Shown here: piece after piece, positions 2,487-48,223 of the stretch
How the letters are laid out: the number at the start of each line of letters is the position of its first letter
Position numbering within the stretch: the first letter of the stretch is position 1
Source of the DNA: Streptomyces sp. NBC_00582
Lineage (GTDB): Bacteria; Actinomycetota; Actinomycetes; Streptomycetales; Streptomycetaceae
Reading direction: 5' to 3'
DNA: 64,000 bases
NCBI RefSeq assembly: GCF_036345155.1
Contig: NZ_CP107772.1
Location: 6,138,001-6,202,000 of the forward strand
Notes under the pieces: generated by a model
Databases searched by the model: none
What the model saw: only the letters and a program-made list of their open reading frames with translations
Told to the model about the DNA's origin: nothing
Translations under genes and position numbers: made by a program

Positions 2487-3422
2487 ATGGTGTTGTCGAC
2501 CGCCGTGGCCGAGGAGGTGGGGCGGGTCCGTGCCCTGACGCATCTCGACGCCCTGGAGTCCGAGGCGGTGCACATCGTCCGTGAGGTGGCGGGGGAGTTC
2601 GAGCGGCCGGTGCTGCTGTTCTCCGGCGGCAAGGACTCGATCGTCATGCTGCATCTGGCGTTGAAGGCGTTCACCCCGGCGCCGCTGCCGTTCGGGCTGC
2701 TGCACGTGGACACCGGGCACAACTTCCCCGAGGTCATCGAATGCCGGGACCGGGTCGTCGCCGAGCACGGGCTGCGGCTGCACGTCGCGTCCGTGCAGGA
2801 CCACATCGACCGCGGGGAGCTGCGCGAGCGTCCCGACGGCACCCGCAACCCGCTGCAGACCGTGCCGCTCACCCACACCATCCGCGCGCAGCGGTTCGAC
2901 GCCGTGTTCGGCGGCGGGCGGCGGGACGAGGAGAAGGCCCGGGCCAAGGAGCGGGTGTTCAGCCTGCGGGACGAGTTCTCGCAGTGGGACCCGCGCCGGC
3001 AGCGGCCCGAGCTGTGGAACCTGTACAACGGCCGCCACGCACCCGGCGAGCACGTCCGGGTCTTCCCGCTCTCCGACTGGACCGAACTGGACGTGTGGCA
3101 GTACATCGCCCGCGAGGGCATCGACCTGCCGGAGATCTACTTCGCGCACCGCCGCGAGGTGTTCCGGCGGGACGGGATGTGGCTGACGGCCGGCGAGTGG
3201 GGCGGCCCGAGGGACACCGAGACCGTCGAGAAACGGCAGGTCAGGTACCGCACCGTGGGGGACATGTCCTGCACCGGAGCGGTCGACTCCGACGCCGACA
3301 CCATCGAGAAGGTGATCTCCGAGATCGCCGCCTCCCGGCTCACCGAGCGGGGGGCGACACGGGCCGACGACAAGCTGTCCGAGGCCGCGATGGAGGACCG
3401 TAAACGCGAAGGGTACTTCTGA
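2487..3422 (+). CDS. cysD: Sulfate adenylyltransferase subunit 2
   Basis: PP-loop ATP pyrophosphatase of 311 residues, the catalytic small subunit of ATP sulfurylase. It makes adenosine 5'-phosphosulfate from ATP and sulfate in the cytoplasm, driven by the CysN GTPase. The PP-loop SGGKDS is near residue 46; the LLHVDTGHNFPE and GGRRDEEKARAKER segments and the C-terminal DRKREGYF are typical. The ATG is preceded by GGAGAGAGAGGG. Two nucleotides separate it from cysN. Within a biosynthetic cluster that also encodes a sulfotransferase, its likely role is to raise the supply of activated sulfate, not general cysteine synthesis. Confidence 0.95.
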   Translation: MVLSTAVAEEVGRVRALTHLDALESEAVHIVREVAGEFERPVLLFSGGKDSIVMLHLALKAFTPAPLPFGLLHVDTGHNFPEVIECRDRVVAEHGLRLHVASVQDHIDRGELRERPDGTRNPLQTVPLTHTIRAQRFDAVFGGGRRDEEKARAKERVFSLRDEFSQWDPRRQRPELWNLYNGRHAPGEHVRVFPLSDWTELDVWQYIAREGIDLPEIYFAHRREVFRRDGMWLTAGEWGGPRDTETVEKRQVRYRTVGDMSCTGAVDSDADTIEKVISEIAASRLTERGATRADDKLSEAAMEDRKREGYF

Positions 3423-3424
3423 CG

Positions 3425-4774
3425 ATGACCAGCACCACGGAACACCCGGCGGCGACCACGCTGCTGCGCTTCGCCACCGCGGGCTCCGTCGACGACGGCA
3501 AGTCGACGCTGGTGGGCCGGCTGCTCCACGACGCGAAGTCGGTGCCGGCCGACCAGCTCGAGGCCGTCGAGCACGCCTCCCGGAGCAGGGGCCAGGACGC
3601 CCCCGACCTGGCGCTGCTCACGGACGGGCTGCGGGCCGAGCGGGAGCAGGGCATCACGATCGACGTCGCCCACCGCTACTTCGCCACGTCCCGGCGGCGG
3701 TTCATCCTCGCGGACACCCCCGGGCATGTGCAGTACACCCGCAACATGGTCACCGGCGCCTCGACCGCCGAGCTGACGGTCGTCCTCGTCGACGCCCGCA
3801 ACGGCGTCGTCGAGCAGACCCGCCGCCACGCCGCGGTCGCCGCGCTGCTGCGGGTGCCGCACGTCGTGCTGGCGGTGAACAAGATGGACCTCGTGGGCTA
3901 CGCGGAGGAGACCTTCGCCGCGATCGCCGACGAGTTCACCGCGTACGCCACGAAGCTGGGCCTGCCCGAGGTCACCGCGATCCCCGTCTCGGCGCTGCGG
4001 GGCGACAACGTCGTGGAGCCCGGCCCGCACATGGACTGGTACGGCGGCCCCACGGTGCTGGAGCATCTGGAGACCGTCCCGGTCGGCCCCGAGCCGGCCG
4101 GCCGCCCGGCGCGCTTCCCGGTGCAGTACGTCATCCGCCCGCAGACCTCCGAGCACCCCGACTACCGCGGTTACGCCGGCCAGATCGCCGCCGGCACGTT
4201 CCACGTCGGCCAGGACGTCACCGTCCTGCCGTCGGGCCGGACGACCACCGTCACCGGCATCGACCTGCTCGGCGTCGGTGTCGGCGCCGCCCGCGCCCCG
4301 CAGTCGGTGACGCTGCGTCTGGCCGACCAACTGGACGTGTCCCGCGGCGATCTGATCGCCCCGACCGGCTGTGCGCCGGCCGTCACCAGGGACATCGAGG
4401 CCACCGTCTGCCATGTCGCCGACCGCCCGCTGACGGCCGGTCACCGGGTGCTGATCAAGCACGGCACCCGCACGGTCAAGGCGATCGTCGAGGACATCGC
4501 GTCCCGGCTCTCGCTGGACGACCTGACCCGGTGCCCGGTGCCCGGTCCGCTCGTCGCCAACGACATCGGGCAGGTGGTGATCCGCACCGCCGAGCCGCTG
4601 CCCGTCGACGGCTACGCCGACTCCCGCCGTACCGGCTCGTTCCTGCTCATCGACCCGGCCGACGGGACCACGCTCACCGCGGGGATGGCCGGGCACGCCT
4701 TCACCGGCGCCGCCTTCGCCGGGCAGGCCGGTGACGGGGCGCCGGCGGAGGACGACGCGGGCTGGGACTTCTGA
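3425..4774 (+). CDS. cysN: Sulfate adenylyltransferase subunit 1 (GTPase)
   Basis: GTPase subunit of ATP sulfurylase, 449 residues, EF-Tu-like. The G1 loop GSVDDGKST is near residue 21, the DTPGHVQYTRNM G3 region near 98, and the NKMD G4 motif near 152, followed by beta-barrel domains. The length matches a stand-alone CysN; the C-terminal APS kinase (CysC) domain of CysNC fusions is absent and no cysC is in the window. PAPS for the downstream sulfotransferase therefore needs an APS kinase encoded elsewhere. Co-transcribed with cysD. Confidence 0.95.
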   Translation: MTSTTEHPAATTLLRFATAGSVDDGKSTLVGRLLHDAKSVPADQLEAVEHASRSRGQDAPDLALLTDGLRAEREQGITIDVAHRYFATSRRRFILADTPGHVQYTRNMVTGASTAELTVVLVDARNGVVEQTRRHAAVAALLRVPHVVLAVNKMDLVGYAEETFAAIADEFTAYATKLGLPEVTAIPVSALRGDNVVEPGPHMDWYGGPTVLEHLETVPVGPEPAGRPARFPVQYVIRPQTSEHPDYRGYAGQIAAGTFHVGQDVTVLPSGRTTTVTGIDLLGVGVGAARAPQSVTLRLADQLDVSRGDLIAPTGCAPAVTRDIEATVCHVADRPLTAGHRVLIKHGTRTVKAIVEDIASRLSLDDLTRCPVPGPLVANDIGQVVIRTAEPLPVDGYADSRRTGSFLLIDPADGTTLTAGMAGHAFTGAAFAGQAGDGAPAEDDAGWDF

Positions 4775-4817
4775 CGGCGGCTCCCGCCGCTCAACCCCTC
4801 GGCTTCGCCGGGGGGTT
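4775..4817. terminator. Convergent terminator region between cysN and the amidinohydrolase gene
   Basis: Two small hairpins stand between converging genes: CGGCGG-CTC-CCGCCG at 4775-4789, and AACCCC...GGGGTT at 4793-4817, which overlaps the 3' end of the minus-strand gene. They probably act from both sides. Confidence 0.5.
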
Positions 4818-5600
4818 GTCCAGTGTGAGGGCGGTGCAGCGGATGCCGCCGCCGCCCTTCGCCAGTTCGGTGGTGCCGAGTTCGACCACCGCGAGACCGC
4901 GGTCGCGCAGTGCGGCGGCCAGACGCGGCACGCCCCGGGCCATGGTCACCGTGGTTCCGTCGCTGACGAGGTTCAGCGCGAACCGCGCCGCCTCCTCGGG
5001 GGACACCTCGATCAGCTCGATCCCGAGCCCGCGCAGGGTCCGCACGCTCGGCGCGTCGAGGGCCTCGGGGCAGTACGCGAGCGTGTCCGCGTCGACGACC
5101 CCGACGGCCAGGTCGAGGTCGTACCAGCGCGGCGACACCGTGCGCAGCGGCACCACCTCGCAGTCCAGTTCCCGGGCGAGCACCGGGAGCATCCGTTCGT
5201 CGGTGCGCTGGCCCCACCCCGTCAGCAGCAGATCGCCGCAGGACAGCGCGTCGCCCTGGCCGCTGAACGCGTGGGGCGCCTCGACGACCTCGAACCCCCG
5301 GCCGGTCAGCCACTCCTCGACGTAGGGGATCTCGGCCTTCCGCTGGGGCGGCGGGCAGCCCAGGACGGCGCGCCCGCCGCGGACCACGGCGGTGTTGGCG
5401 GTGAAGACCATGTCCGGGCACTGGGGAGCGGACGGCAGGGTCTCGACGGTGCGGCCGGCGGCGAGATGCGCGGTCACGATGGCCCGGTGCTCGGCGAGCG
5501 TCGCCTCGGTGTCGGGCTGGACCGCGGTGTCCATATAGGGGTTGATCTCGTAGTCGACCCGGAAGTGGCGCGCGTCGGAGACGAGGAGTTCGCTGTTCAC
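4791..5600 (-). CDS. Amidinohydrolase-family protein (DDAH-like), atypical active site
   Basis: 269-residue guanidino-modifying superfamily protein, closest in outline to dimethylargininase. It carries the CPDMVFTANTAVV substrate-loop motif (residues 61-73) and GGGGIRC with the nucleophilic Cys255. Two positions differ from the usual pattern. The catalytic His of the YHLD motif is Asp161 (WYDLD), and the FEG(x)GD acid position is Ser113 (FSGQGDAL). It is the last gene of the operon that makes and activates piperazate. A role in converting arginine or a guanidino intermediate, perhaps supplying ornithine, is an inference only. Amidino transfer seems less likely from its length. Confidence 0.7.
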   Translation of the reverse strand: MNSELLVSDARHFRVDYEINPYMDTAVQPDTEATLAEHRAIVTAHLAAGRTVETLPSAPQCPDMVFTANTAVVRGGRAVLGCPPPQRKAEIPYVEEWLTGRGFEVVEAPHAFSGQGDALSCGDLLLTGWGQRTDERMLPVLARELDCEVVPLRTVSPRWYDLDLAVGVVDADTLAYCPEALDAPSVRTLRGLGIELIEVSPEEAARFALNLVSDGTTVTMARGVPRLAAALRDRGLAVVELGTTELAKGGGGIRCTALTLDNPPAKPRG

Positions 5601-5628: not shown

Positions 5629-6900
5629 TCACGGCAGCGGGACGGACGGCGTGCCCGGGCGGGCGGCCCCGTCGAGTCCGTGGTGGATCACGACCGTTCG
5701 CCTCGGGGCCCGTTTTTCGGCGGGGACCACCGTCACCGGCAGCGAGCGCAGGCCGTTGACCACCCATGTGGACTGCCAGCCGGGCGGACCCGCGAGCGCC
5801 AGGGAGGCGTCGGCGCGGGTGAGTTCCTCCAGCAGCGTCCGCAGCAGCACCCGGACCAGGGCTGCACCGAGGCAGAAGTGCATGCCGGCGCCGAGGGTCA
5901 GATGCGGGTTGGGACGGCGGTCCAGGAGCAGTGCGTCGGGGCGGGCGAAGACGGCGCCGTCGCGGTTGGCGGCGGCGATCCACACCGCGACCGCGTCACC
6001 GGCCCGGATCGTGGTGCCCGCGAGGTCGGTGTCGCACACCGCGGTACGCATCAGATGCGTGGCCGGAGCGGTCCAGCGCAGCAGCTCCTCCACGGCGGTG
6101 TCGGCACCGACCCGTCCCGCGCGCAGCGCCTCCCAGGCCGCCGGGTGCTCCAGCAGGGCCAGCAGGCTGCCGCTCGCGGCGTGCCCGGCCGTCTGGCTCG
6201 CGGCCACCACGATGTTGTCGCACGTGAGCACGATCTCCTCGTCCGACAGCGGCAGACCGCCGGCGCGGGCCGCCAGCAGCGTGCCGATCAGGTCCGGGCC
6301 GGCCTGTCCCCGCCGGGCGCCGAGCGCCTTCAGGTAGTACGTCATCACCTCGTGGTGGCCGGCGGCCGCGTCGTCCGCGTCCTCCACGGAGCGGCCCGTG
6401 GCGTGCAGGACCATCGGCACATCCTCGGGAGGGATGCCCAGCATCTCGGCCTGGACCAGGAGGGGGAACCTCGCGGCGACCTCGGTGACGAAGTCGCCGC
6501 CGCCCCGCTCCCGCAGCTCCGCCAGCAGGGAGCCCGCCACCTCGCGGGCCAGCGCGCCCAGCTGCCGCACGGCCTTCGGCGTGAACAGCCGGGCGACGGC
6601 CCTGCGCAGATCGGTGTGCCGGGGCGGATCGGTGAGGACCGGCATCTTGCCGGCGCCGGGGTAGGGAGCGGAGTTGTCGTCCGCGCGCAGCGTGGTGCCG
6701 CGGGTGGAGGTGAAGACCTTCCAGTCGGTCAGCACCTGTCGGCCGGCCTCGTGCCCCACCACGGCCCAGAACCGCGAGCCGGTCCTCGCCACCCGGTGGT
6801 GCACGGGACCGGCCTCCCGCATGGTCCGCCACACCTCGTACGGGTATCCGTACGCGTACAGCGACGAATCCAACAGGTCGACCGTGGACGGCACAGACAA
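5629..6900 (-). CDS. Cytochrome P450, NRPS-tailoring type
   Basis: About 423-residue soluble bacterial P450. The heme-ligand loop LTLGAGMHFCLGAAL and the ETLR-region LRWTAPATHLMR are clear. The I-helix reads VVAASQTAGHA, so the usual acid of the acid-alcohol pair (AGxET/AGxDT) is Gln while the Thr is kept. It starts at TTG 6900 with AGGGGG 5-10 nt upstream, or at GTG 6894. It lies directly after a free PCP gene and in the piperazate operon, so an amino acid bound to that PCP, for example piperazate, is a plausible substrate. The reaction cannot be read from sequence. Confidence 0.88.
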   Translation of the reverse strand: MSVPSTVDLLDSSLYAYGYPYEVWRTMREAGPVHHRVARTGSRFWAVVGHEAGRQVLTDWKVFTSTRGTTLRADDNSAPYPGAGKMPVLTDPPRHTDLRRAVARLFTPKAVRQLGALAREVAGSLLAELRERGGGDFVTEVAARFPLLVQAEMLGIPPEDVPMVLHATGRSVEDADDAAAGHHEVMTYYLKALGARRGQAGPDLIGTLLAARAGGLPLSDEEIVLTCDNIVVAASQTAGHAASGSLLALLEHPAAWEALRAGRVGADTAVEELLRWTAPATHLMRTAVCDTDLAGTTIRAGDAVAVWIAAANRDGAVFARPDALLLDRRPNPHLTLGAGMHFCLGAALVRVLLRTLLEELTRADASLALAGPPGWQSTWVVNGLRSLPVTVVPAEKRAPRRTVVIHHGLDGAARPGTPSVPLP

Positions 6901-6958: not shown

Positions 6959-7174
6959 TCAGATGGCCGCGACGAAGTCCGCGAACCGGGAGTTGTCGAA
7001 CAGCACCTTCACCGGCGTCGGGGTCCCGTGCCGGTCGTCGAGCATCGCGACGATGCGCAGCGCGGCGAACGACGTGCCGCCCGCGTCGAAGAAGTCGGTG
7101 TCGTCGGCCACGTCGGCCCCGAGCACCTCCCGCCAGATCGTCCGGACCGCGCTTTGCAGTTCCTCGCCCGTCAT
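6959..7174 (-). CDS. Free-standing peptidyl carrier protein
   Basis: 71-residue carrier protein with the phosphopantetheine-site motif DFFDAGGTSFAAL. The ATG overlaps the stop of the preceding thioesterase-like gene (ATGA). Thr follows the double Gly, a tolerated variant of GGxS. It is one of two discrete PCPs in this operon and, sitting next to the P450, is a likely platform for oxidation of a tethered amino acid. No adenylation domain is fused to it, so loading must be in trans, perhaps by the neighbouring KtzT-A protein. Confidence 0.88.
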   Translation of the reverse strand: MTGEELQSAVRTIWREVLGADVADDTDFFDAGGTSFAALRIVAMLDDRHGTPTPVKVLFDNSRFADFVAAI

Positions 7175-7929
7175 GTCCGGTGCCTCCTCGTAGTCGCGGA
7201 CAGGAACGACACGACGCCGGTCCTGGTCGATGCGTGGGCCGTGAGCCCGGCGCGGTCGCTGTCGACGCGCAGGGTGGTCAGCTCCCCGTCGGGGAGCCAG
7301 TCGCGGTGGTCGGGGTGGTCGCGGGAGAGAACCTGGAGCATCGGCCCGACGGGTTCCCTGGGCAGCGCGCCCCGCGCCGCCAGCAGATAGGCGAGATACG
7401 ACACGTGCTGCCGGGCGAAGTGCGCGACCGGTCCGGCGATCGTGTCGTCGCCGAGCCCCTGCGCCCGCAGGGCCGTCCGCGCGCGCCGCGTGAGGTCCTC
7501 GCGTACGGCCGCCAGGAACGGCTCGGGTGCGGCGGGCAGCTCCCCGACCGGTACCGGCGGCTCGTCGGCCCCCGGCACCTGGGCGACGGCGTCGGCGTAG
7601 GCGCGGGCGACGTCGTCGTCGGTGGTCGGCATCGGATCGAGGAGGACCAGGGGGCGCGGCCGCCCGGACCGGCGGGCGAGACGGACCGCGATCGCCGACG
7701 CGGCGCAGTACGCCAGGAGGGGACCGGGGCCGTCGTCGAGAAGGGCCGCGTACGCGGGGCCGGTGCCCGCGGCCGGCAGCGGGTCGGTCAGCAGCGGGAC
7801 CATGCCGTCGAGCCCCAGCGCGGTGACCGGGGCCTCCGGCCGGCGCCCCGGATAGTCCAGGACCAGCACCGTCTCCCGTGGCTCCCGCGCGTCCGGTCCG
7901 GCCACGGCGTGCTCGACGTGAGCCGTCAC
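7171..7929 (-). CDS. Thioesterase-like alpha/beta-hydrolase with Cys at the nucleophile position
   Basis: 252 residues from a GTG that overlaps the stop of the upstream PCP gene. The sequence aligns loosely with NRPS thioesterases. The segment LLAYCAASAIAVRLA lines up without gaps on the LFGHSMGALLAFEVA nucleophile elbow of the canonical thioesterase at 12955-13710, placing Cys75 where Ser is expected and replacing the flanking glycines by alanine. A downstream PLVLLDPM strand is also typical. It lies between two free PCP genes, so it probably acts on, or edits, PCP-bound residues. Catalytic competence is uncertain because the elbow is so altered. Confidence 0.6.
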   Translation of the reverse strand: MTAHVEHAVAGPDAREPRETVLVLDYPGRRPEAPVTALGLDGMVPLLTDPLPAAGTGPAYAALLDDGPGPLLAYCAASAIAVRLARRSGRPRPLVLLDPMPTTDDDVARAYADAVAQVPGADEPPVPVGELPAAPEPFLAAVREDLTRRARTALRAQGLGDDTIAGPVAHFARQHVSYLAYLLAARGALPREPVGPMLQVLSRDHPDHRDWLPDGELTTLRVDSDRAGLTAHASTRTGVVSFLSATTRRHRT

Positions 7930-8219
7930 CGCTCGTCCACGAGCCGCGCCACCCGGTCCGCGAAGTCCGCCAGCACCGGGTGGTCGATGAGGAGTTGGAC
8001 GGTGATGTCCAGCCCCCACTCGCGGCGCACCGTCGCGGTGGCCAGCGCGGCCTGGAAGGAGTCGCCGCCGCCGGAGAAGAAGTGGTGGTCGGCCGCGGTG
8101 ACCCGGGTGCCGAGCGCGGCCGACCAGAGCTCGGCGATGCGCGGCCCGTACGGCCCGGTGGCCCCGGCCGGGGCGGGCCCGCCCGTGGTGGTGGCGCCGG
8201 CGAGCGGTTCGGCCGTCAT
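7926..8219 (-). CDS. Free-standing peptidyl carrier protein, probable partner of the KtzT-A protein
   Basis: 97-residue carrier protein with an Ala/Gly/Pro-rich leader of about 25 residues, then the carrier fold with the site HFFSGGGDSFQAAL. The ATG overlaps the stop of the upstream adenylation gene by the ATGA pattern, so the two are translationally coupled. The obvious reading is that it receives the amino acid activated by the preceding adenylation domain, which lacks its own PCP. It would then deliver that residue to a PCP-lacking or trans-loaded site of the main assembly line. Confidence 0.9.
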   Translation of the reverse strand: MTAEPLAGATTTGGPAPAGATGPYGPRIAELWSAALGTRVTAADHHFFSGGGDSFQAALATATVRREWGLDITVQLLIDHPVLADFADRVARLVDER

Positions 8220-10408
8220 CGGTCGGCTCCGGTCGCCAGGGACTCGGCGACCGAGTCACGGTCGATCTTGCCGCTCGGGGTCCGCGGCAGCCCGGGCAGC
8301 ACGGTCACCGACGCGGGCACCGACGCCTCCGGCAGCAGCTCGGCCAGCGCCGCGCGCAGGTCGCCGGGTTCGGTGACGTCCGGGTGCAGGGTGACGGCGG
8401 CGCGCAGCTGACGCGAGCCGGGGACCGGCTCCAGGGCCACACAGACCGCGGTGGCGACACCGGGCTGCTGCATCAGACAGGCCTCGATCTCCAGCAGGTT
8501 GACCCGGATGCCGCGGATCTTGACGTCGTGGTCCAGCCGGCTGAGGAAGTACACGAGGCCGTCCTCGACGCGCACCAGGTCACCGGTGCGGAAGGCCTCG
8601 GTGTGTCCCCGCGGGGTCGGCTCGACGGTGACGAACCGTTCGGCGTTCAGCTCCGGCCGTCCGAGGTAGCCGAGGGACATCGGGGCGCCCGCGACGAGCA
8701 GTTCGCCGGTGGTGGGGTCCTCCGGGTCGGCGGGGTCCACCAGCAGCTCACAGCCCGGCAGCGGCCGGCCGATGGGCGGCAGCAACGGCCACACGGCGGG
8801 GTCGGCGGGCAGGACGTACGAGCTGACCATCGCGGACTCGCTCTGTCCGTAGTGGTTGCCGAGCCGGGCCCCGGGCAGCGCCTCGAACAGCGCCCGGATC
8901 GGCGGCGTGCACAGCAGTTGCTCGCCCGCCGTGTTCACCTCGCGCAGGGCCAGACCGAGCTCGCCGTCCCGGGCCGACGCCGCCACCGCCAGCATGTGGA
9001 GGGCGACGTAGGGCAGGAACAGGCGCTCGACGCGATGGTCGGCCAGCCAGGTCAGGAAGGTGAAGGGATCGCGCCGCAGCGTCTCGGGGACGACGACGAG
9101 GGTGCCGCCGCCGCACAGCGTGCCGAGGATCTCCTGGAAGCACACGTCGAAGTTCAGGGGCGCGAACTGCGCGGTCCGCAGGTCGGGCCGGACGGAGTCG
9201 GTGCGCTGCCAGGTCACCATGTTGTCCAGGCAGCTGTGCTGGATCGTCACGCCCTTGGGCACACCGGTCGATCCGGAGGTGTAGATGACGTACACCGGCA
9301 GGTCCGGCCGGCAGGCGACCGGCCGGAAGTCGTCGGCGCCGGCTCCGCGGGGGTCCTCGATGGCGAGGGTCATGACCTCGTCGGCGATCGCCGGCCGGGG
9401 GCCGTCGTGCAGCAGGAGGCTCGCGCCGCTGTCGCGCAGCATGAACGTGAGCCGGTTCACCGGGTACGACGCGTCCAGCGGCACATAGGTCGCGCCGACC
9501 GCGATCGTGGCGAGCAGCGCCGCGACGGTGCGCGCGCCGCGCCCGCCGGTCACCGCGACCCGGCTGCCGGGGGCGCTGCCGTGCCGGGTGAGGGTCCCAG
9601 CGAGTTCGGCGACCCAGGACCACAGCTCCGCGTACGTCAGCCGGGTCTCCCCGTCGACGAGGGCGAGCGCGTCGGGCCGCTCGGCCACGGTGCGGACCAG
9701 CCCGTCCAGCAGGCACTCCGGTTGTGCGGACCCGCCCCACAGGGTGGGGCGCCGCGTCGACTCGGGCTGCTGCGTCCGTCCCGTCCGGCACATGTGGACC
9801 CCCAGTGCCCGACGGGTCGGATCACCGTCGTCGAGCATGCTCTTGGCGACCCGGGCGCGGATCGCGGGCTTCTTCTCCTGGCTGAGCTTGAACATCGCCT
9901 GCCCGGACGTGACGTCGAAGCGGAAGGCGCCGACGCCGCCGATGATGCTGCGGAAGTAGTCGACCGACCCGCCGGACTCCCAGCCCCGGCCGAACCGCTG
10001 CTCGAACAGCTCGGCCGTGCGCCGGACCACCGCCAGGGTCTCCTCGCCCTCGGGCAGCGGCACCACCTCACCGGTCAGTTCGGCGGTGACGAAGTTCCAG
10101 GTGGGAGCCGCCACCTGGGTGTCGTACAGGGCGGGGGTGACATAGCCGCTCGGGCCGCTGAAGACGAGGCTCGCGGGCGTGCCGCCGGTCAGCGCCCGCC
10201 AGTGCGGGTTGGCCCGGTTGAGGTGGCCGAGGAGCGAGAAGCCGGCGAACGTCCCCGGATCCTCGGCGCCCGGCGGATGACTGATCGGCAGCAGGGTCGT
10301 GTACGGCGTGGTGGGCCCGTTGCTCACCAGCATGGCCATCGGATGTTGCCGGATGATCTGGTGCAGCTCGGCGGGATCCGTGACCCGGTAGATCGGGGGA
10401 ACGAACAT
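8216..10408 (-). CDS. Fusion of PaiB/KtzT-like piperazate synthase and NRPS adenylation domain
   Basis: 730-residue two-domain protein. Residues 1 to about 215 form a PaiB-type split-barrel domain matching the heme-dependent piperazate synthase KtzT in its landmarks: start MFVPPIYR, GHLNRANPHW (62-71, where the family His ligand is expected), APTWNF, and GAFRF...MFKLSQEKKPAIR. Residues from about 245 form a complete adenylation domain (YVIYTSGSTGVPKG, NHYGQSES, RTGD, PSGKIDRD). The specificity positions read roughly D-V-Q-F-N-A-H-M-V, close to proline-type codes (DVQxxAHxV), which suits a cyclic imino acid. The ATG has CGGAGAGA upstream. An ornithine N-hydroxylase gene lies 14 nt upstream. 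KtzT closes N5-hydroxyornithine to L-piperazate, so this protein probably both makes and activates piperazate. I know of no characterised fusion of this kind. Confidence 0.85.
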   Translation of the reverse strand: MFVPPIYRVTDPAELHQIIRQHPMAMLVSNGPTTPYTTLLPISHPPGAEDPGTFAGFSLLGHLNRANPHWRALTGGTPASLVFSGPSGYVTPALYDTQVAAPTWNFVTAELTGEVVPLPEGEETLAVVRRTAELFEQRFGRGWESGGSVDYFRSIIGGVGAFRFDVTSGQAMFKLSQEKKPAIRARVAKSMLDDGDPTRRALGVHMCRTGRTQQPESTRRPTLWGGSAQPECLLDGLVRTVAERPDALALVDGETRLTYAELWSWVAELAGTLTRHGSAPGSRVAVTGGRGARTVAALLATIAVGATYVPLDASYPVNRLTFMLRDSGASLLLHDGPRPAIADEVMTLAIEDPRGAGADDFRPVACRPDLPVYVIYTSGSTGVPKGVTIQHSCLDNMVTWQRTDSVRPDLRTAQFAPLNFDVCFQEILGTLCGGGTLVVVPETLRRDPFTFLTWLADHRVERLFLPYVALHMLAVAASARDGELGLALREVNTAGEQLLCTPPIRALFEALPGARLGNHYGQSESAMVSSYVLPADPAVWPLLPPIGRPLPGCELLVDPADPEDPTTGELLVAGAPMSLGYLGRPELNAERFVTVEPTPRGHTEAFRTGDLVRVEDGLVYFLSRLDHDVKIRGIRVNLLEIEACLMQQPGVATAVCVALEPVPGSRQLRAAVTLHPDVTEPGDLRAALAELLPEASVPASVTVLPGLPRTPSGKIDRDSVAESLATGADR

Positions 10409-10422
10409 GGTGTCTCTCCGGA

Positions 10423-11700
10423 TCAGGTCTGGCGGATTATCGATGTCGCGATCTCGCCCGCCCGGACGGCGGTGTTGGAGAGCAGCCCCGCGCTCAGGCC
10501 GTGGCTGCCCTCGGTGCCGGCGCCGTGCAGATAGATGCCGCAGCGCAGCACCGACGAGGTGCGGACCCGGTAGTCGCGGTCCAGGTACAGACCGCCGCTC
10601 TCGTCCTTCTTGCACTCGTCGGCCAGGTCGCCGAGCAGCGGCAGGGGATCGGCGGGCCGGTAGCCGGTGGCGTAGACGACCCCGTCCACCACCAGTCGCG
10701 TCACCTCACCGGTGACCAGCGACTCCACCTCCACCTCGACGCCGTCGGCGGTCTCCGTGCAGGCACGCACCCGTGACACGCGGTGGACGTGCAGCCGTGG
10801 CCGGCCCTGCACCTCCTCGAGGTAGACGCGCCGGAACAGCTCCTGGCTCAGATCCAGGTCGACGACCGCGTAGTTGGTGTTGCCGTGGTACCCGAGCAGC
10901 GCCTCCTTGGTCTGCTCCGGGGCGTGGAAGAAGTCGTCGACGGCGGCCGGGTCGAAGATGCCGTTCGCGAAGGGGCTGTCGTCGGCGACGCTGTAGCCGT
11001 AGCGGGCGTGGACGGTGTGCACGGCCGCGTCGCCGTGGGTGCGGTGCAGGTAGTCGGCGCACTCGGCGGCGCTCTGCCCCGCGCCGACGACCAGGTACCG
11101 CCCGTGCCGGGGGGTGCCGAGGCCGTGGGTGAGCAGCTGCGAGCTGTGCCGGATCCGCGCCGAGGGGGTGACGCCCGGCGGCAGGTGGGGGGTCATCCCC
11201 GTGCCGAGCACGACGTTGCGTGCCCGCTGGACCTGCCGGGCGCCGTCCGCGTCCCGCGTGACGACCTCGACGAGGTCGACGTGACCGTCCGGGCCCTGCA
11301 CCGGGCGGATGCCCTCGACCGTCGAGCCGTAGGAGACGTGCGCGTCGAACTGCGCCGCCGACCAGCCCAGGTAGTCGTGGAACTCGACACGGTACGGGTA
11401 CAGCATCTTGCTGTTGATGAACGCCGGCATCCTGCCGTGGGCGTGCAGATAGGCGAGGAACGTGTGGCGGCTGCCGGGATTGCGCATCGTCGCGAGGTCC
11501 TTGAGGAACGAGACCTGCATCGTGGCGCCCTCGATCAGCATGCCGGTGTGCCAGCCGAAGCTCGCCTGCCGCTCGTGGAAGGCCATGGTGGTCGGTGCGT
11601 CGGACTCCTCGAGGGCGATCGCCAGGGCGAGGTTCGCGGGTCCGAACCCGACCCCCGCGACATCCACGGTACGGGTGTTCGGCAGAGCGGCGGCTGTCAC
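10423..11700 (-). CDS. L-ornithine N5-monooxygenase-like flavoenzyme (KtzI type)
   Basis: 425-residue class B N-hydroxylating monooxygenase with FAD motif GVGFGPANLALAIAL near the N-terminus, NADPH motif VVGAGQSAAECADYL mid-protein, and C-terminal ATGYRP. It starts at GTG 11700. It is the first gene of the minus-strand operon, 14 nt before the KtzT-A fusion. That gene order supports ornithine as substrate and N5-hydroxyornithine as product, the precursor of piperazate. The substrate itself cannot be proved from sequence, since lysine- and ornithine-specific members share these motifs. Confidence 0.9.
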   Translation of the reverse strand: MTAAALPNTRTVDVAGVGFGPANLALAIALEESDAPTTMAFHERQASFGWHTGMLIEGATMQVSFLKDLATMRNPGSRHTFLAYLHAHGRMPAFINSKMLYPYRVEFHDYLGWSAAQFDAHVSYGSTVEGIRPVQGPDGHVDLVEVVTRDADGARQVQRARNVVLGTGMTPHLPPGVTPSARIRHSSQLLTHGLGTPRHGRYLVVGAGQSAAECADYLHRTHGDAAVHTVHARYGYSVADDSPFANGIFDPAAVDDFFHAPEQTKEALLGYHGNTNYAVVDLDLSQELFRRVYLEEVQGRPRLHVHRVSRVRACTETADGVEVEVESLVTGEVTRLVVDGVVYATGYRPADPLPLLGDLADECKKDESGGLYLDRDYRVRTSSVLRCGIYLHGAGTEGSHGLSAGLLSNTAVRAGEIATSIIRQT

Positions 11701-15015: not shown

Positions 15016-15134
15016 CAGCGTGCTCCCCCTCGTGCCGGGGCGGGGGAGGGAACGCGAGGCTGGTCGCTGTACTGCGGGGTCACGGGCAGATTCCTGTCTC
15101 GGATCACGGGGGGACTGAACAGCGTGGCGCTCAT
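15015..15134 (-). CDS. Putative 39-residue small protein, coupled to both neighbours
   Basis: Short ORF beginning MSATLFSPPVIRDRN and ending RVPSPAPARGGAR. Its ATG overlaps the aminotransferase stop (ATGA) and its TGA overlaps the MFS start (TGATG). AGGAG lies 7 nt upstream, complement of 15142-15146. This placement is strong support for translation. The peptide is Pro/Arg/Ser-rich with no Cys, no membrane segment and no domain I recognise. It could be a coupling leader, a small accessory protein or a vestige. Function unknown. Confidence 0.6.
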   Translation of the reverse strand: MSATLFSPPVIRDRNLPVTPQYSDQPRVPSPAPARGGAR

Positions 15135-16393
15135 GATCGTGCTCCTGCGGCCCGCCCGAGCACCACACGGACGGACGTCTCGAGGATCTCGAGCCCCTCG
15201 GACAGTTCCGCGTCGGACACCGTCAGCGGCGGCAGCAGCTTGACGACCTCGTCCTGCGGACCGGCGGTCTCCACCAGCAGGCCCCGCGCGAACGCCTCGT
15301 CGGCCACCGCGTCGGCCGCCCCCGCGCCGACCACCAGACCCTGCAGAAGTCCGCGGCCCCGGGTGGACAGACCCGCCTCGGGGTGGGCGTTGACGATGTC
15401 CTGCAGGGCGTTGCGGACCCACTCGCCGCGGGCGCGCGTCGACTTCTCCAGCGCGTCGTCCCGCCAGTAGGCGGCGAGCGCCGCCGTGGCGGTGACGAAC
15501 GCCGGGTTCACCCCGCGGAACGTGCCGCTGTGGGCGCCCGGCCGCCAGACGTCGAGGTCGGGGCGGACCAGGGTGAGCGCGAGCGGCAGGCCGTAGCCGC
15601 CGATGGACTTCGACAGGCAGATCAGGTCGGGCACGATGCCCGCGTCCTCGAAGCTGAAGAACGGGCCGGTCCGTCCGCAGCCCGCCTGGATGTCGTCGAC
15701 GATCAGCAGGATCTCGTGGCGCCGGCACAGGTCCGCGAGCGCCCGCAGCCACTCGGTGCTCGCCACGTTCACGCCGCCCTCGGCCTGCACGGTCTCCACG
15801 ATCACCGCGGCCGGCCGGTCCAGCCCGCTGCCCGGGTTGGCCAGCAGCCGCGCCAGGTGCTCCGGGTGGGGGTGCCCGTCGTGGCCGTCGAACGGCACCG
15901 GGGTCGCACCCGTGAGCGGCACACCGGCGGAGCGGCGGTGCAGGGGGTTGCCGGTGACCGCGAGCGCGCCGAGCGTCGCGCCGTGGAAGGAGTTGGTGAA
16001 GTGCACGACCTCGCTGCGGCCGGTGACCGTGCGGGCCAGCTTCAGGGCCGCCTCGACGGCGTTGGCGCCGCCCGGACCCGGGAAGATCACCTTGTGGTCC
16101 AGGCCCCGGGGCTGCAGCAGCACCTCGACGAGCGTCTCCAGCAGGGCGTGCCGCGCGGTGGTGAACATGTCGAGCGCGTGGGTGACGCCGTCGTTGGCGA
16201 CGTAGTCCAGCAGCGCCCGCTTGAGCACCGGGTTGTTGTGCCCGTAGTTCAGCGAGCCGGCCCCGGCGAAGAAGTCCAGCCAGCTACGGCCCTCCTCGGA
16301 GTGCAGGCGGCTGCCGGTGGCGCGGGAGAAGACGACCGGCCAGCGCCTGCTGTAGGACCGCACGCCCGACTCGTGCTGGTCGAAGATGCTCAT
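15131..16393 (-). CDS. Class III aminotransferase, EctB-like (L-2,4-diaminobutyrate synthesis)
   Basis: 420-residue PLP fold-type I aminotransferase. Close agreement with EctB runs along its length: SIFDQHESGVRSYSR at the N-terminus, FFAGAGSLNYGHNNP, DGVTHALDMFTT, FHGATLGALAVTGN, the VDDIQAGCGRTG segment, and SKSIGGYGLPL with the PLP Lys. EctB converts aspartate semialdehyde and glutamate to L-2,4-diaminobutyrate (Dab). No ectA or ectC is near, so Dab would serve as an NRPS building block, not for ectoine. This agrees with two adenylation domains in the cluster that have acidic, diamino-acid-type pockets. Confidence 0.9.
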   Translation of the reverse strand: MSIFDQHESGVRSYSRRWPVVFSRATGSRLHSEEGRSWLDFFAGAGSLNYGHNNPVLKRALLDYVANDGVTHALDMFTTARHALLETLVEVLLQPRGLDHKVIFPGPGGANAVEAALKLARTVTGRSEVVHFTNSFHGATLGALAVTGNPLHRRSAGVPLTGATPVPFDGHDGHPHPEHLARLLANPGSGLDRPAAVIVETVQAEGGVNVASTEWLRALADLCRRHEILLIVDDIQAGCGRTGPFFSFEDAGIVPDLICLSKSIGGYGLPLALTLVRPDLDVWRPGAHSGTFRGVNPAFVTATAALAAYWRDDALEKSTRARGEWVRNALQDIVNAHPEAGLSTRGRGLLQGLVVGAGAADAVADEAFARGLLVETAGPQDEVVKLLPPLTVSDAELSEGLEILETSVRVVLGRAAGARS

Positions 16394-18142: not shown

Positions 18143-19756
18143 ATGACGTCTGCTGCCCAGAATTCCGTGTCCGCCGTCGTCGAGTATGTCTTCCGGCGGT
18201 ATCCACAGGTCGCCCGGCGGGCGGGCCGGCACGATCTCGACGGCCGGCTGCCCGACGTCGTACCCGACTCCCCGTCCGAGGTGGACGGTCTGCTCACCGC
18301 GGTCCGCGCCCCGCTCGACGCGCTGCCCGAGGACGCGGACCCGGAGCTGCGGGCGGACCTCGGCACGGCCCTGCGGGTCCTCACCGACGAACGGTTCCGC
18401 ATCGTCGGGCTCGGCCGGCCCCACCGCGGGCCCGACCTGTGGCTCGCCGAGACCGACGTCCACAGCTATCTGCGCGGCGCGTACGCCCCCCTGGACGAGC
18501 GGGTCGCGGCCCTGACGCGGCACCTGGCCCAGGTGCCGGACTTCCTCGCCGCCGCGGCGGGGACACTCGGCCGCTCGTTGCCGGCGGGCGAACGCATCAG
18601 CGGCGTCGAGAACGCCAGGGCCCGCGCGGTGTCGGTTCCGCGCCTCGTGGACCGGCTCCTCGCGCGGCGGCCCGATCTGGCCGACGGCTCCCTGCGGGAA
18701 CTGGCCGGCTCGGCGGGCGCCGCGTTCGCCGGCTTCGCGGACGCGGTCGCGGCCACCGCGCCGGCCCGCGCGGTGTACGGCCCCGACCGGCTCGCCGCCC
18801 ACCTCGAGGCGGCCGAGGGGGTCGACACCCCGGTGGAGGAGCTGCTCGCCGAGACCGAGGCGGAGGTACGGCACCTGGTGGCCCGGCTCGACACGCTCGC
18901 CGCACGACTGGGCGTGCGCGGCCGGCAGGAGACGTACGACCTGATGAGCGCATGTCTCCCGGCAGGATCGGTGGTCACCGCGCTGTCGGACGTCATCGAG
19001 CGGCAACGGGAGTTCTGGGCCGGGCAGGACGTCGTCACCCTCACCAGCCGGCACGGTCTCGACATCCGGCCCGCCCGCGACGCGTCGACCTCGGCGGCGG
19101 TCGTCTTCGACCACGCCGGAGCGCTCGAGGCGGTCCCGCAGCCGCATGTGCTGCACGTCCCCGAGCCGGGCGACCCCGCCCTGCTGCGCGACTACCTCAA
19201 CGAGCCGATGCTCGAGATGATCGCCGTGCACGAGGTCGTCCTCGGCCACTATCTGCACCACGAGGCCACCCCCGAGCACGCCGGTGTGATCCGCAGGTGT
19301 GTGCCGTGGTTCCCCGGGACCACCGAGGGCTGGGCCCACTACACCGAGGAACTGGCGATCGAGCGTGGCCTCGCCGAGGGCCGCCCGCTCGTGGAGGTCG
19401 CCGCCCTGCGCCATGCGCTGGAGGCCGCCACCCGCCTGCTGGTGTTCCTCTCCGTCCACTCCGGCCGGAGCGGGTTCGGCGCCGCCGCCGCCGAGGCCGC
19501 CACCCTGTGCGCGTGGTCGCCCGAGCGCGCGGGCCGCGAGGTGCTGGCCGTGGCCGCCCACCCCGCCGGTGCCATGTACACGCTCGGCAAGCTGCACATC
19601 CGTCGGTGGCGCGAGTCGGCCGGCGCGACCGCGTCGGCCGCCGGTCTCAAGGCCTTCCACGACCGGCTGCTGCGCTGTGGCGGCGCGCCCCTGTCCACCG
19701 TACGGCGCTACTCCCTCGACGGCCGGCTCGTTCCGACCGCATCCACCACGACGTGA
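18143..19756 (+). CDS. DUF885 family protein, putative metallohydrolase (first copy)
   Basis: 537-residue protein of the DUF885 family. The zinc-site-like motif HEVVLGHYLHHE (about residues 360-371) and TTEGWAHYTEEL about 40 residues later match the HExxxGH...EGW pattern of the family, which has a peptidase-like fold. No signal peptide or membrane segment is seen. It stands between mbtH and the FGE-like gene, 24 nt after mbtH. A second paralogue is at 44164-45876. Function in this pathway is unknown; hydrolysis or rearrangement of a peptide intermediate are guesses. Confidence 0.8.
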   Translation: MTSAAQNSVSAVVEYVFRRYPQVARRAGRHDLDGRLPDVVPDSPSEVDGLLTAVRAPLDALPEDADPELRADLGTALRVLTDERFRIVGLGRPHRGPDLWLAETDVHSYLRGAYAPLDERVAALTRHLAQVPDFLAAAAGTLGRSLPAGERISGVENARARAVSVPRLVDRLLARRPDLADGSLRELAGSAGAAFAGFADAVAATAPARAVYGPDRLAAHLEAAEGVDTPVEELLAETEAEVRHLVARLDTLAARLGVRGRQETYDLMSACLPAGSVVTALSDVIERQREFWAGQDVVTLTSRHGLDIRPARDASTSAAVVFDHAGALEAVPQPHVLHVPEPGDPALLRDYLNEPMLEMIAVHEVVLGHYLHHEATPEHAGVIRRCVPWFPGTTEGWAHYTEELAIERGLAEGRPLVEVAALRHALEAATRLLVFLSVHSGRSGFGAAAAEAATLCAWSPERAGREVLAVAAHPAGAMYTLGKLHIRRWRESAGATASAAGLKAFHDRLLRCGGAPLSTVRRYSLDGRLVPTASTTT

Positions 19757-19775: not shown

Positions 19776-20621
19776 GTGACCGAGGTGACGGCCGAACTGA
19801 TCCCCGCCGAGGCGTTCCCCGCGGACCACTGGGTCACCGTCCCCGGCGGCCCCTTCACCATGGGCTCCGACGAACTGCGCAAGGACGGCAAGCGCCGGGC
19901 GGCCTCGCCCGAACACCAGGTCGACGTGGCCGAGTTCCGCATGGCCCGGTACCCGGTCACCGTCGCGGACTTCCGCCGCTTCGTGGCGGCGACCGGCCAT
20001 GTGACCGACGCGGAGAAGAAGGGCAGGAGCTGGGTCTGGATCGGCGACCCCGCCGTCGTCGTCCCCGACCAGGACTACCTGTGGAAGGAGATCGACGGCG
20101 CGACCTGGCGCACCCCGCGCGGCGAGGGCTCCACCGTGGAGGGCAAGGACGACCACCCGGTCACCCACGTCAGCTACTACGACTGCCTCGCCTACTGCGA
20201 GTGGTCCGGCACCCGGCTGCCCACCGAGGCCGAGTGGGAGAAGGCCGCCCGCGGCACCGACGGCCGCGCCTACCCGTGGGGCAACGAGGAGCCCACCGCG
20301 CAGCACTGCAACCACACCATGAACGTCGCCGACACCACCGCCGTCGACGCCTACCCGCAGGCGACCGGCCCGTACGGCAACGCGGACCTGACCGGCAACG
20401 TCTGGGAGATCACCTCCAGCCGCTTCCACCACTACCCGTACGACGAGAACAAGCCGGGGCGGGTCATCAAGACCCCGGCGGGCTCGATCGAGCTCGGCGT
20501 GATCCGCGGCGGCTCCTTCTACAACAACTGTGACCCCCGTGGCTGCCTGGCGTGGGTGCGGATCTACAACCTGCCCGACTACAGCTGCTACGACATGGGC
20601 TTCCGTGTCTGCGCACGCTGA
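19776..20621 (+). CDS. FGE-sulfatase (SUMF1/PvdO-like) domain protein
   Basis: 281 residues, a single formylglycine-generating-enzyme fold: VPGGPFTMGSDE at the start, RLPTEAEWEKAARG, YPWGNE, GNVWEITSS, VIRGGSFYNN, GFRVCAR at the end. True aerobic FGE needs two Cys five residues apart; here the segment is GCLAWVR, keeping the first and lacking the second. No sulfatase gene is present. Pyoverdine clusters use a relative (PvdO) for peptide oxidation, and EgtB enzymes share the fold, so an oxidative tailoring role is more likely than formylglycine formation. The GTG start has AAGGAG upstream; the gene overlaps sbnA. Confidence 0.82.
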   Translation: MTEVTAELIPAEAFPADHWVTVPGGPFTMGSDELRKDGKRRAASPEHQVDVAEFRMARYPVTVADFRRFVAATGHVTDAEKKGRSWVWIGDPAVVVPDQDYLWKEIDGATWRTPRGEGSTVEGKDDHPVTHVSYYDCLAYCEWSGTRLPTEAEWEKAARGTDGRAYPWGNEEPTAQHCNHTMNVADTTAVDAYPQATGPYGNADLTGNVWEITSSRFHHYPYDENKPGRVIKTPAGSIELGVIRGGSFYNNCDPRGCLAWVRIYNLPDYSCYDMGFRVCAR

Positions 20622-21606
20622 CCCAGGACGGATCGACCGGCAGCTGCTCGACCGCGTGGACGCGCTCCTGGGCGATCTGCCCAGGACCCGCGTCGTGCGA
20701 CTGCCGCACCCCGGCATCCGGCTCTACGCCAAGATGGAGTCGGAGAACCGGACGGGCAGTGCGAAGGACCGGGCCGCGATCTGGATCCTCCGGGAGGCGG
20801 TCCGGCGCGGCGAGATCACCCGGAGCACCACGGTGGTCGAGTCGTCCTCCGGGAACTTCGCCCTCGCCCTCGCCTCGTTCCTGCACGAGCTGGACGTGCC
20901 GTTCGTGCCGGTGCTCGACCCGAACGTGAACGCGGCCACCGAGCGGACGCTGCGGAGGCTGTGCGCACGGGTGGAGAAGGTCACGGAGCCGGACGGCACC
21001 GGCGGCTATCTGATGAGCCGGCTCGCCCGGGTCGCCGAGCTCCGCGCGCGGCTCCCGGACGTGTACTGGCCGAACCAGTACACCAACCCGGACGGCGCGC
21101 GCGGCCACTACGACCTGACGGCGCGTGAACTGCTCGACGACCTCGGCCGGATCGACTACCTCTTCGTGGGGGTCGGCACCGGCGCGACGATCAACGGGCT
21201 CTCGCGCCGGCTCGGCGAGGAACACCCCGACGCCGCCGTGGTCGCCGTGGACGTCGAGGGCTCGGCGATCTTCGGCGCCCCGCCGGCCCGCCGGCGCATC
21301 CCGGGCATCGGCTCCAGCATCCGGCCGCCGCTCATCGACGACGCCTGGATCAGGAAGGTCGTCGTGCTGTCCGAGCGGGACGAGGTGGCCGGCTGCCGGG
21401 CCCTGCTGCGCGACCACGGCATCTACGCGGGCGGCTCCACCGGCTGCGTCTACGCCGCGATCACCCGCCACTTCGACGGACACACGGGCCCCGAGCCGGT
21501 GGTGGCGTTCCTGTGCGCCGACAGCGGCACCCCCTACGCCGACACGGTCTACGCGGACGACTGGGTCGCCCACCACCTCACACCGGTCGCAACCGAGGGA
21601 GCATGA
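20605..21606 (+). CDS. sbnA: SbnA-like PLP synthase (L-2,3-diaminopropionate pathway)
   Basis: 333-residue cysteine-synthase-family enzyme. SbnA joins O-phospho-L-serine and glutamate to N-(1-amino-1-carboxy-2-ethyl)glutamate, which SbnB converts to L-Dap. Motifs are ENRTGSAKDRAA with the PLP Lys, SSSGNFALALASF, the GVGTGATINGLSR phosphate loop and a C-terminal GGSTG. The GTG at 20605 lies inside the end of the FGE-like gene, consistent with coupling, and gives a length close to SbnA (about 326). Its partner sbnB is at 42908-43930, still within the same cluster. Confidence 0.88.
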   Translation: MSAHADPGRIDRQLLDRVDALLGDLPRTRVVRLPHPGIRLYAKMESENRTGSAKDRAAIWILREAVRRGEITRSTTVVESSSGNFALALASFLHELDVPFVPVLDPNVNAATERTLRRLCARVEKVTEPDGTGGYLMSRLARVAELRARLPDVYWPNQYTNPDGARGHYDLTARELLDDLGRIDYLFVGVGTGATINGLSRRLGEEHPDAAVVAVDVEGSAIFGAPPARRRIPGIGSSIRPPLIDDAWIRKVVVLSERDEVAGCRALLRDHGIYAGGSTGCVYAAITRHFDGHTGPEPVVAFLCADSGTPYADTVYADDWVAHHLTPVATEGA

Positions 21607-42783: not shown

Positions 42784-42907
42784 GCGGGCGACCGTAGAGG
42801 AGGCCGTCCGAGCGCTTCAAGGAAGCAGTTCCCCGAGCAATCGCCTTGTCCCACCACGGAGTTCACGCCATCTCACACCGAATCCATCACGAGAAGAGGA
42901 AGTGCCC

Positions 42908-43983: not shown

Positions 43984-44163
43984 CTCTGCGCCCGGTCGGC
44001 GTTCAATCGGCCGTTGATTGACCCGTAAAACCCGTCACGCCATGATCTGTGCCTCGGCGGTGCGCTGCACCGCGTTCCGTAAGTCCGGTGAGTGCTCCAC
44101 GGCGTGACGCCGTGCCCCCGGACGGCGCCATCGGCTCAATCGACCCAGGGTGAGGTGGAAACA

Positions 44164-47268: not shown

Positions 47269-47338
47269 GACACCCGTGGGACCTGCGCCGACATCCATGG
47301 CGTCGGCCGTGGCCGAGCCGAACCAGCAGGAGGAGACA

Positions 47339-48205: not shown

Positions 48206-48223
48206 CGAATGCCGAGGTGCTGC

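What the first reader, a model, noticed from the sequence alone, without database searches (positions are those of the whole stretch)
8216..10408. Piperazate synthase fused to its own adenylation domain
One open frame joins a PaiB/KtzT-type domain to an NRPS adenylation domain whose pocket (about D-V-Q-F-N-A-H-M-V) resembles proline codes. An ornithine N-hydroxylase gene lies immediately upstream and a free PCP immediately downstream. The three genes form a compact make-activate-tether cassette for piperazate, with the N-N bond-forming enzyme physically linked to the gatekeeping domain. KtzT is normally free-standing and often mis-annotated as the PaiB regulator, so automated annotation would call this a transcriptional regulator fused to an NRPS.
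Basis: partly seen in the sequence, partly recalled or inferred. Interest (0 to 1): 0.88.

Follow-up and report, generated by a model that had tools for sequence, protein, structure and literature searches.

The report
Piperazate maker fused to its activator
A Streptomyces gene joins, in one protein, the enzyme thought to build the rare nitrogen-nitrogen amino acid piperazate and the enzyme domain thought to activate it for peptide assembly, a variation on a known pathway that could hand a reactive building block straight to its user.

Summary
The fusion is real. It lies on the minus strand (8216-10408, 730 aa). Residues 1-~208 are a piperazate synthase (PZS) domain: best solved relative SbPZS (E 1.9e-66; PaiB 6.7e-16), active-site positions kept (one Asp is Glu, as in most PZSs), and on the PZS side of a tree that separates PaiB-like proteins. 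Residues ~226-722 are an adenylation (A) domain with code DVQFNAHMVK, not the published piperazate code DVFxVAxYAK. The fusion occurs in 14 of 120 listed homologues (one is the window's own), in four named actinobacterial genera, but in only 3 of 392 Streptomyces genomes. In 80 PZS loci it is fused in 2, and an unfused A of the same clade follows KtzI-PZS in 6. 12 of 13 genomes with this A clade have PZS, against 57 of 392 overall. The exception, G274, keeps the cluster but lacks KtzI, PZS and a DDAH-like gene there, and its pocket has M changed to V. Best reading: ornithine to hydroxyornithine to piperazate to piperazyl-AMP to PCP. Substrate and channelling are untested. Hydroxylase-PZS fusions are published; I found no PZS-A fusion in the papers I could search. 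New variant of a known kind.

The parts
8216..10408 (-). PZS-A fusion gene, 730 aa, ATG start at 10408
   Evidence: 14-nt gap to the upstream gene, with a GGAGAG stretch before the ATG
9785..10408 (-). piperazate synthase domain (aa 1-208); heme-ligand His62 at codon 10223-10225
9734..9784 (-). linker (about aa 209-225; variable, one relative, P0007, is about 60 residues longer, in this region)
8219..9733 (-). NRPS adenylation domain (aa 226-730), code DVQFNAHMVK, Lys714 at the Lys517 position
10423..11700 (-). KtzI-like L-ornithine N5-hydroxylase (Lys_Orn_oxgnase, 336.4 bits)
   Evidence: next to PZS in fused and unfused loci
7926..8219 (-). free PCP 1 (FFSGGGDS), overlaps the fused gene by 4 nt
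7171..7929 (-). 252-aa NcmC-like alpha/beta-hydrolase with invariant Cys75 (aminoacyl shuttle or cyclase), overlaps both PCP genes by 4 nt
   Evidence: no Pfam, NCBIfam or single-sequence PDB match
6959..7174 (-). free PCP 2 (FFDAGGTS)
5629..6900 (-). cytochrome P450, candidate tailoring enzyme (role inferred from position only)
4791..5600 (-). DDAH / arginine-dihydrolase-like enzyme (below both NCBIfam cutoffs), candidate supplier of ornithine or citrulline from arginine
   Evidence: absent with KtzI and PZS in the fetched G274 region; homologues in 23 of 80 PZS loci, but not in the fused locus L043
28684..33086 (+). NRPS2 (A-PCP-C; ORF bounds, true start probably near 29170) followed by a separate PCP with no A domain of its own: one possible acceptor of a trans-loaded residue
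33083..39442 (+). NRPS3, C-A-PCP-C-PCP-C; the second PCP has no cis A domain

Best explanation
The gene encodes a bifunctional enzyme of an NRPS cluster. Its N-terminal heme domain cyclises N5-hydroxy-L-ornithine, made by the KtzI-like enzyme encoded 14 nt upstream, to L-piperazate. Its C-terminal A domain then adenylates piperazate and loads it on the free PCP encoded directly downstream. The loaded residue is probably tailored and moved in trans (P450, Cys-hydrolase-like protein, second PCP) to a carrier position of the main NRPS that lacks its own A domain. A DDAH-like enzyme may feed ornithine from arginine. Shown by sequence: the fusion, the domain identities, the gene order, recurrence, conserved active-site positions, absence of the supply genes as a set in the G274 region. 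Inferred: PZS activity, piperazate as the A-domain substrate, order of transfer, any channelling, the role of the DDAH-like enzyme.
For: PZS domain: solved-structure hits SbPZS 227.5 bits, KtzT 184.4, PipS 182.5, LnzB 144.1, NohD 132.1, PaiB 62.2; in a 102-row tree the PaiB-like rows lie on the other side of a branch (support 93, not starred; the program warns of long branches) and the window lies with SbPZS and other PZSs. Tyr7, Thr38, His62, Asn64, Asn67, Tyr95, Thr103, Tyr151, Lys174 and Gln177 are kept in 15 of 15 fused rows, Met172 in 14, Glu178 and Lys179 in 12 each with substitutions of which Asp178 and Gln179 also occur in unfused PZSs, Gly178 (2 rows) not (roles from PMC13274692, and KtzT H65 from PMC11705231). 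It is the only PF04299 match in its genome. A domain: of 80 PZS loci it is fused in 2 (L042, L043), and in 6 (L044, L046, L048, L056, L062, L069) a separate A gene of the same clade and code starts 44-108 nt after PZS behind KtzI-PZS on the same strand. 12 of 13 Streptomyces genomes with the A clade have a PZS-domain match, against 57 of 392 overall (Fisher p 3.5e-10; without the three fused genomes 9 of 10 against 54 of 389, p 9e-8). None of the other A domains read in the window carries a published piperazate code or a proline-like code. G274: same cluster, but KtzI, PZS and the DDAH-like gene are missing from the 40 kb fetched, no PZS match in the genome at E 1e-15, code DVQFNAHVVK; the relatives P0011-P0014, which lack the PZS part, all have V too.
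Against: The code is not a published piperazate code (PMC9866976, PMC10888640). Discrete A proteins in piperazate clusters can activate other residues: ArtC prefers Val (PMC5031334). P0015 lacks the PZS part yet keeps the M code; whether the genomes of P0011-P0015 hold PZS elsewhere was not checked. In four of the 12 co-occurring genomes A and PZS are far apart or on different contigs (G351 1.36 Mb, G388 53 kb, G187, G123). Residue 39, His in 74 and Arg in 6 of 80 unfused PZS rows, is Leu in this protein and in five of its fused relatives. NohD, named N-hydroxylamine dehydratase in PDB, has the PZS-type residue at most compared positions. The fused locus L043 shows no DDAH-like gene within its 20.6 kb. 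Genomes are related, so the p-values overstate independence. The cluster may run past the left edge of the window, so an unseen A domain cannot be excluded (G274 has a further NRPS-like stretch there).
Confidence: 0.7

Rival explanations
1. The A domain activates proline (or a substituted proline) and the fused PZS makes piperazate for another position of the peptide; the fusion is only a co-expression device.
For: The pocket has Val236 and Gln239, common in proline A domains (PMC12283262, passage); G274-type relatives carry the A domain without PZS; P0015 keeps the M code without the PZS part.
Against: None of the other A domains read in the window has a published piperazate code; the A clade tracks PZS across genomes; absence of the PZS part goes with a pocket change in 4 of 5 close relatives (P0011-P0015).
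Confidence: 0.19
2. The PZS domain acts on N4-hydroxy-2,4-diaminobutyrate and makes 5-azaproline, which would suit a proline-like pocket.
For: KtzT is slightly active on that substrate and yields 5-azaproline (PMC11705231, passage); the cluster has an EctB-type diaminobutyrate transaminase above its cutoff and a second N-hydroxylase-like gene.
Against: The G274 region keeps the EctB gene (88% identical) but lacks KtzI, PZS and the DDAH-like gene, which points to an arginine/ornithine route.
Confidence: 0.05
3. A PaiB-like FMN or heme regulator fused to an A domain, or a NohD-like dehydratase with no N-N bond formed.
For: Pfam names the domain FMN_bind_2; NohD is 41% identical.
Against: 30-34% identity to six PaiB-like proteins, which have Ala at Asn64 and Lys at Met172; tree position; adjacent ornithine hydroxylase. 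Asn105 is as in KtzT, not Asp as in NohD, though LnzB and eight other unfused rows also have Asp.
Confidence: 0.06

Closest known systems
KtzT / SbPZS / PipS piperazate synthases
   Same: Family, heme His and active-site residues, adjacent ornithine hydroxylase
   Different: Those are single-domain proteins, SbPZS and KtzT dimers (PMC13274692, PMC11705231, passages); here the C-terminus continues into an A domain, and residue 39 is Leu
Hydroxylase-PZS didomain enzymes (Hu et al. 2019, seen only as cited in PMC11705231; the paper itself is not held)
   Same: A natural PZS fusion that shortens the same pathway
   Different: There PZS is joined to the step before it (N-hydroxylation), here to the step after it (adenylation)
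Discrete A proteins MfnK (marformycin) and MatJ (matlystatin), passages of PMC5719088
   Same: Separate A protein proposed to activate piperazate; the matlystatin cluster also has KtzI- and KtzT-like genes
   Different: Not described as fused. Their sequences were not at hand, so membership in this A clade is untested
In-line piperazate A domains (HmtL-A1, KtzH-A1, ArtF-A1, ArtG-A2)
   Same: Piperazate activation (proposed here)
   Different: Code DVFxVAxYAK or near it, in large NRPS modules; here DVQFNAHMVK
NcmC Dieckmann cyclase (for the neighbouring 252-aa protein)
   Different: Arg where the NcmC His region aligns; no tetramate-type substrate identified

Membership tests
Piperazate synthase (KtzT family) | Heme-ligand His (KtzT H65, SbPZS H61) | tested here: met
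   His62, 15 of 15 fused rows; but also 6 of 6 PaiB-like rows, so not diagnostic
Piperazate synthase (KtzT family) | KLSQ flanked by Met and Glu, and other residues that separate PZS from PaiB | tested here: met
   MFKLSQE; Asn64 and Met172 as in PZS, Ala and Lys in 6 of 6 PaiB-like (motif from PMC10888640, passage)
Piperazate synthase (KtzT family) | Groups with proven PZSs, not with PaiB | tested here: met
   102-row tree, branch support 93
Piperazate synthase (KtzT family) | Partner N-hydroxylase gene | tested here: met
   10423-11700, 14 nt upstream
Piperazate synthase (KtzT family) | Heme binding, dimer, conversion of N5-hydroxyornithine | not testable with these tools
   needs protein
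NRPS adenylation domain | AMP-binding domains with Asp235 and Lys517 | tested here: met
   Asp421, Lys714; PF00501 and PF13193 over cutoff; TIGR01733 just under its cutoff, 313.7 against 317.4
Published piperazate A-domain code (DVFxVAxYAK) | Ten-residue code | tested here: not met
   DVQFNAHMVK
PaiB regulators | PaiB-type residues and grouping | tested here: not met
NcmC-type Dieckmann cyclase (252-aa neighbour) | Cys-Asp-His triad (NcmC triad recalled; C89S variant named in PDB) | tested here: inconclusive
   Cys75 and Asp98 in 34 of 34 rows; Arg226 (31 of 34) near where the NcmC His-His aligns; His232 in 28 of 34

The most novel reading that the evidence does not exclude
A channelling enzyme: the PZS dimer brings two A domains beside its active sites, so that the hydrazine amino acid is adenylated as it forms and never accumulates free. 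The A clade carries a third, proline-derived piperazate code, and loss of the supply genes switches the same assembly line to proline, a natural product swap.
Probability: 0.25. Interest if true: 0.72.

Novelty: new variant of a known kind. Interest (0 to 1): 0.5.

Why it matters
If right, it adds a code by which genome mining can find piperazate clusters that the DVFxVAxYAK rule misses, gives a ready-made protein for feeding piperazate to engineered NRPSs, and offers a natural pair (this cluster and G274) to test how an A pocket moves between piperazate and proline. Source names of the fused homologues ('AMP-binding protein', 'amino acid adenylation domain-containing protein') hide the PZS half.

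Tried and rejected
Plus-strand reading of 8216-10408: not the gene. Single-sequence structure of the fused protein: mean pLDDT 34.9, not used. One versus two origins of the fusion: unresolved; holding the Streptomyces and rare-actinomycete fused groups together is not rejected (A tree, 71 rows = P0002-P0071 plus one outgroup, p-AU 0.58; PZS tree cut to 48 of 102 rows, p-AU 0.38). A first A-tree test (p 5e-55) is void because P0015, which lies inside the Streptomyces clade, was left out of the group. Not finished: whether P0011-P0015 form one clade, and the PZS test on all 102 rows. Looking for a named MfnK or MatJ among homologues of the A clade showed none in the 120 listed of 248. A class-level draw of 394 genomes showed no full-length fusion other than the window's own (two candidates scored per genome). 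Alignment A2 held one row with wrong coordinates (L033) and was replaced by A3, one of whose 34 rows (P0143) is a copy of the window's protein. Sequence search of the 252-aa protein alone against PDB found nothing. SyrC/CmaE-type shuttling by that protein was considered; SyrC is taken from a passage of PMC10609185, CmaE from recall; neither sequence was compared.

Full report
Observation. The frame named in the finding is real but lies on the minus strand. It encodes 730 residues from an ATG at 10408 to a stop at 8216-8218. Pfam splits it into FMN_bind_2 (1-167), AMP-binding (239-582) and AMP-binding_C (640-714). The upstream gene is a Lys/Orn N-hydroxylase ending 14 nt before; downstream PCP1, a 252-aa protein and PCP2 follow with 4-nt overlaps, then a P450 and a DDAH-like gene. 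The fused frame is kept in two other genomes, G262 and G212, inside the same gene order. In the window's genome the fused protein is the only PF04299 match.

N-terminal domain. Against solved structures it matches SbPZS (9qlk, 1.9e-66), KtzT, PipS, LnzB and NohD well above PaiB (6.7e-16) (the names of 9qlk, 9jn5, 9ebm and 9kea are from PMC13274692, passages). At 15 of 16 compared positions the window has a residue that also occurs in unfused PZSs. The exception is residue 39: Leu here and in 6 of 15 fused rows in all, His in 74 and Arg in 6 of 80 unfused rows. The heme His is also in 6 of 6 PaiB-like rows, and PMC13274692 says PaiB binds heme, so the His test proposed in the finding cannot decide; Asn64, Met172 and the tree do. 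The tree had 102 rows: 15 fused, 78 unfused loci, PipS, LnzB, NohD and six PaiB-like; L042 was left out as the same genome record as G212. SbPZS and KtzT are represented by the loci of Streptomyces sp. B93 (L045) and Kutzneria sp. 744 (L104).

A domain. The ten-residue code is DVQFNAHMVK. Among the 120 listed homologues 85 have it, 22 DVQFNGHMVK, 4 DVQFNAHVVK and 9 other near variants; 14 of 120 are fused, one of them (P0002) listed as the window's own protein. Published piperazate codes are DVFSVAAYAK, DVFSVASYAK, DVFTVAAYAK and DVFSVGPYAK (PMC9866976 and PMC10888640, passages). Proline codes often share Val236 and Gln239 (PMC12283262, passage).

Association. A scan of genome contigs with the PZS domain kept the best 80 of 156 loci. 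The A clade lies in 11 of 80 of these roughly 20-kb loci: fused in L042 and L043, in a separate gene 44-108 nt behind KtzI-PZS in L044, L046, L048, L056, L062 and L069 (in-frame stops checked), elsewhere in L049, L059 and L099 (at most four A matches per locus were listed). Another 11 of 80 show DVF...YAK-type codes; single positions there are unsure because of alignment gaps. In 392 Streptomyces genomes 57 have a PZS-domain match at E 1e-15; 8 of the 62 matches are far weaker and PaiB-like, leaving 50 genomes with a strong match. 13 have the A clade at 1e-110, and 12 of the 13 have both. In 8 of these 12 the two lie fused or within 13 kb; in G388 53 kb apart, in G351 1.36 Mb, in G187 and G123 on different contigs. 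Fused are 3 of 392: G000, G262, G212; two further long frames (G276, G362) have no A match within 1.5 kb. The other matches have frames too short for the fusion.

A natural gene loss. G274 has no PZS match at E 1e-15. Its cluster matches the window's at 65-89% from NRPS2 through KAS3 to the dpg-like genes. In the 40 kb fetched, KtzI and PZS are missing between KAS3 and the A gene, and the DDAH-like gene is missing after the P450; its A code is DVQFNAHVVK. P0011 still begins like KtzI and carries what look like the last residues of PZS before the A domain (by eye). P0011-P0014 form a clade (99) whose place inside the fused Streptomyces clade (100) has support 83. This suggests that the fused state came first. 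P0015, beside P0010 (85), looks like a second loss without the code change. DDAH-like genes occur in 23 of 80 PZS loci (no background was measured), though not in the fused locus L043; an amidinotransferase has been proposed to supply ornithine in the diperamycin cluster (PMC10888640, section read).

Novelty. Searches for 'piperazate synthase' with 'fused' and 'adenylation domain' (0 papers), with 'fusion' (2 papers, listing only), and for two of piperazic acid, adenylation domain and PaiB (26 papers, 10 listed) showed no PZS-A fusion. The library is partial: Hu et al. 2019, Morgan et al. 2019, Wei et al. 2022 and Stephan et al. 2023 are not held, so a description there is possible. The review PMC11705231 (passages) reports hydroxylase-PZS fusions. 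Hence a new variant of a known kind: same chemistry, new joining, and a code not listed for piperazate in what I could read.

Noticed in passing
15131-16393 (-), 20530-21606 (+), 42776-43930 (+): EctB (599.5 bits, cutoff 552.2) and SbnA (356.8, cutoff 349.95) pass their cutoffs, SbnB-like does not (191.4, cutoff 326.9): the cluster probably makes 2,4-diaminobutyrate and 2,3-diaminopropionate.
   Followed up: partly
48209-49534 (+): A second Lys/Orn N-hydroxylase-like gene beside an A-PCP protein (49556-51391, code DPFWLGGFTK).
   Followed up: no
L042 near 12516; L043 near 12420: An extra A-containing NRPS stretch lies between PCP1 and the 252-aa gene in S. albiflavescens (32% match); a weaker match (25%) in S. 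atratus. It is absent in the window.
   Followed up: no
18143-19756 and 44092-45876 (+); 38524-41769 (+): Two DUF885 proteins and a penicillin-amidase-like protein in the cluster, conserved in G262 and G212.
   Followed up: no
2487-4774 (+) and 47276-48205 (+): PAPS-reductase-fold and EF-Tu-like GTPase genes (CysD/CysN type, recalled) and a weak sulfotransferase match (below cutoff) hint at a sulfated product.
   Followed up: no
19776-20621 (+): FGE-sulfatase domain protein nearest to EgtB but far below its cutoff (127.7, cutoff 360).
   Followed up: no
L066: A PZS on a contig labelled Candidatus Melainabacteria branches within actinobacterial PZSs (end branch 0.04), so the bin is probably contaminated.
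   Followed up: no
unfused PZS rows: 9 of 80 unfused PZS-like rows have His in place of Tyr151 and 9 of 80 have Asp for Asn105; such subgroups may do other chemistry.
   Followed up: no
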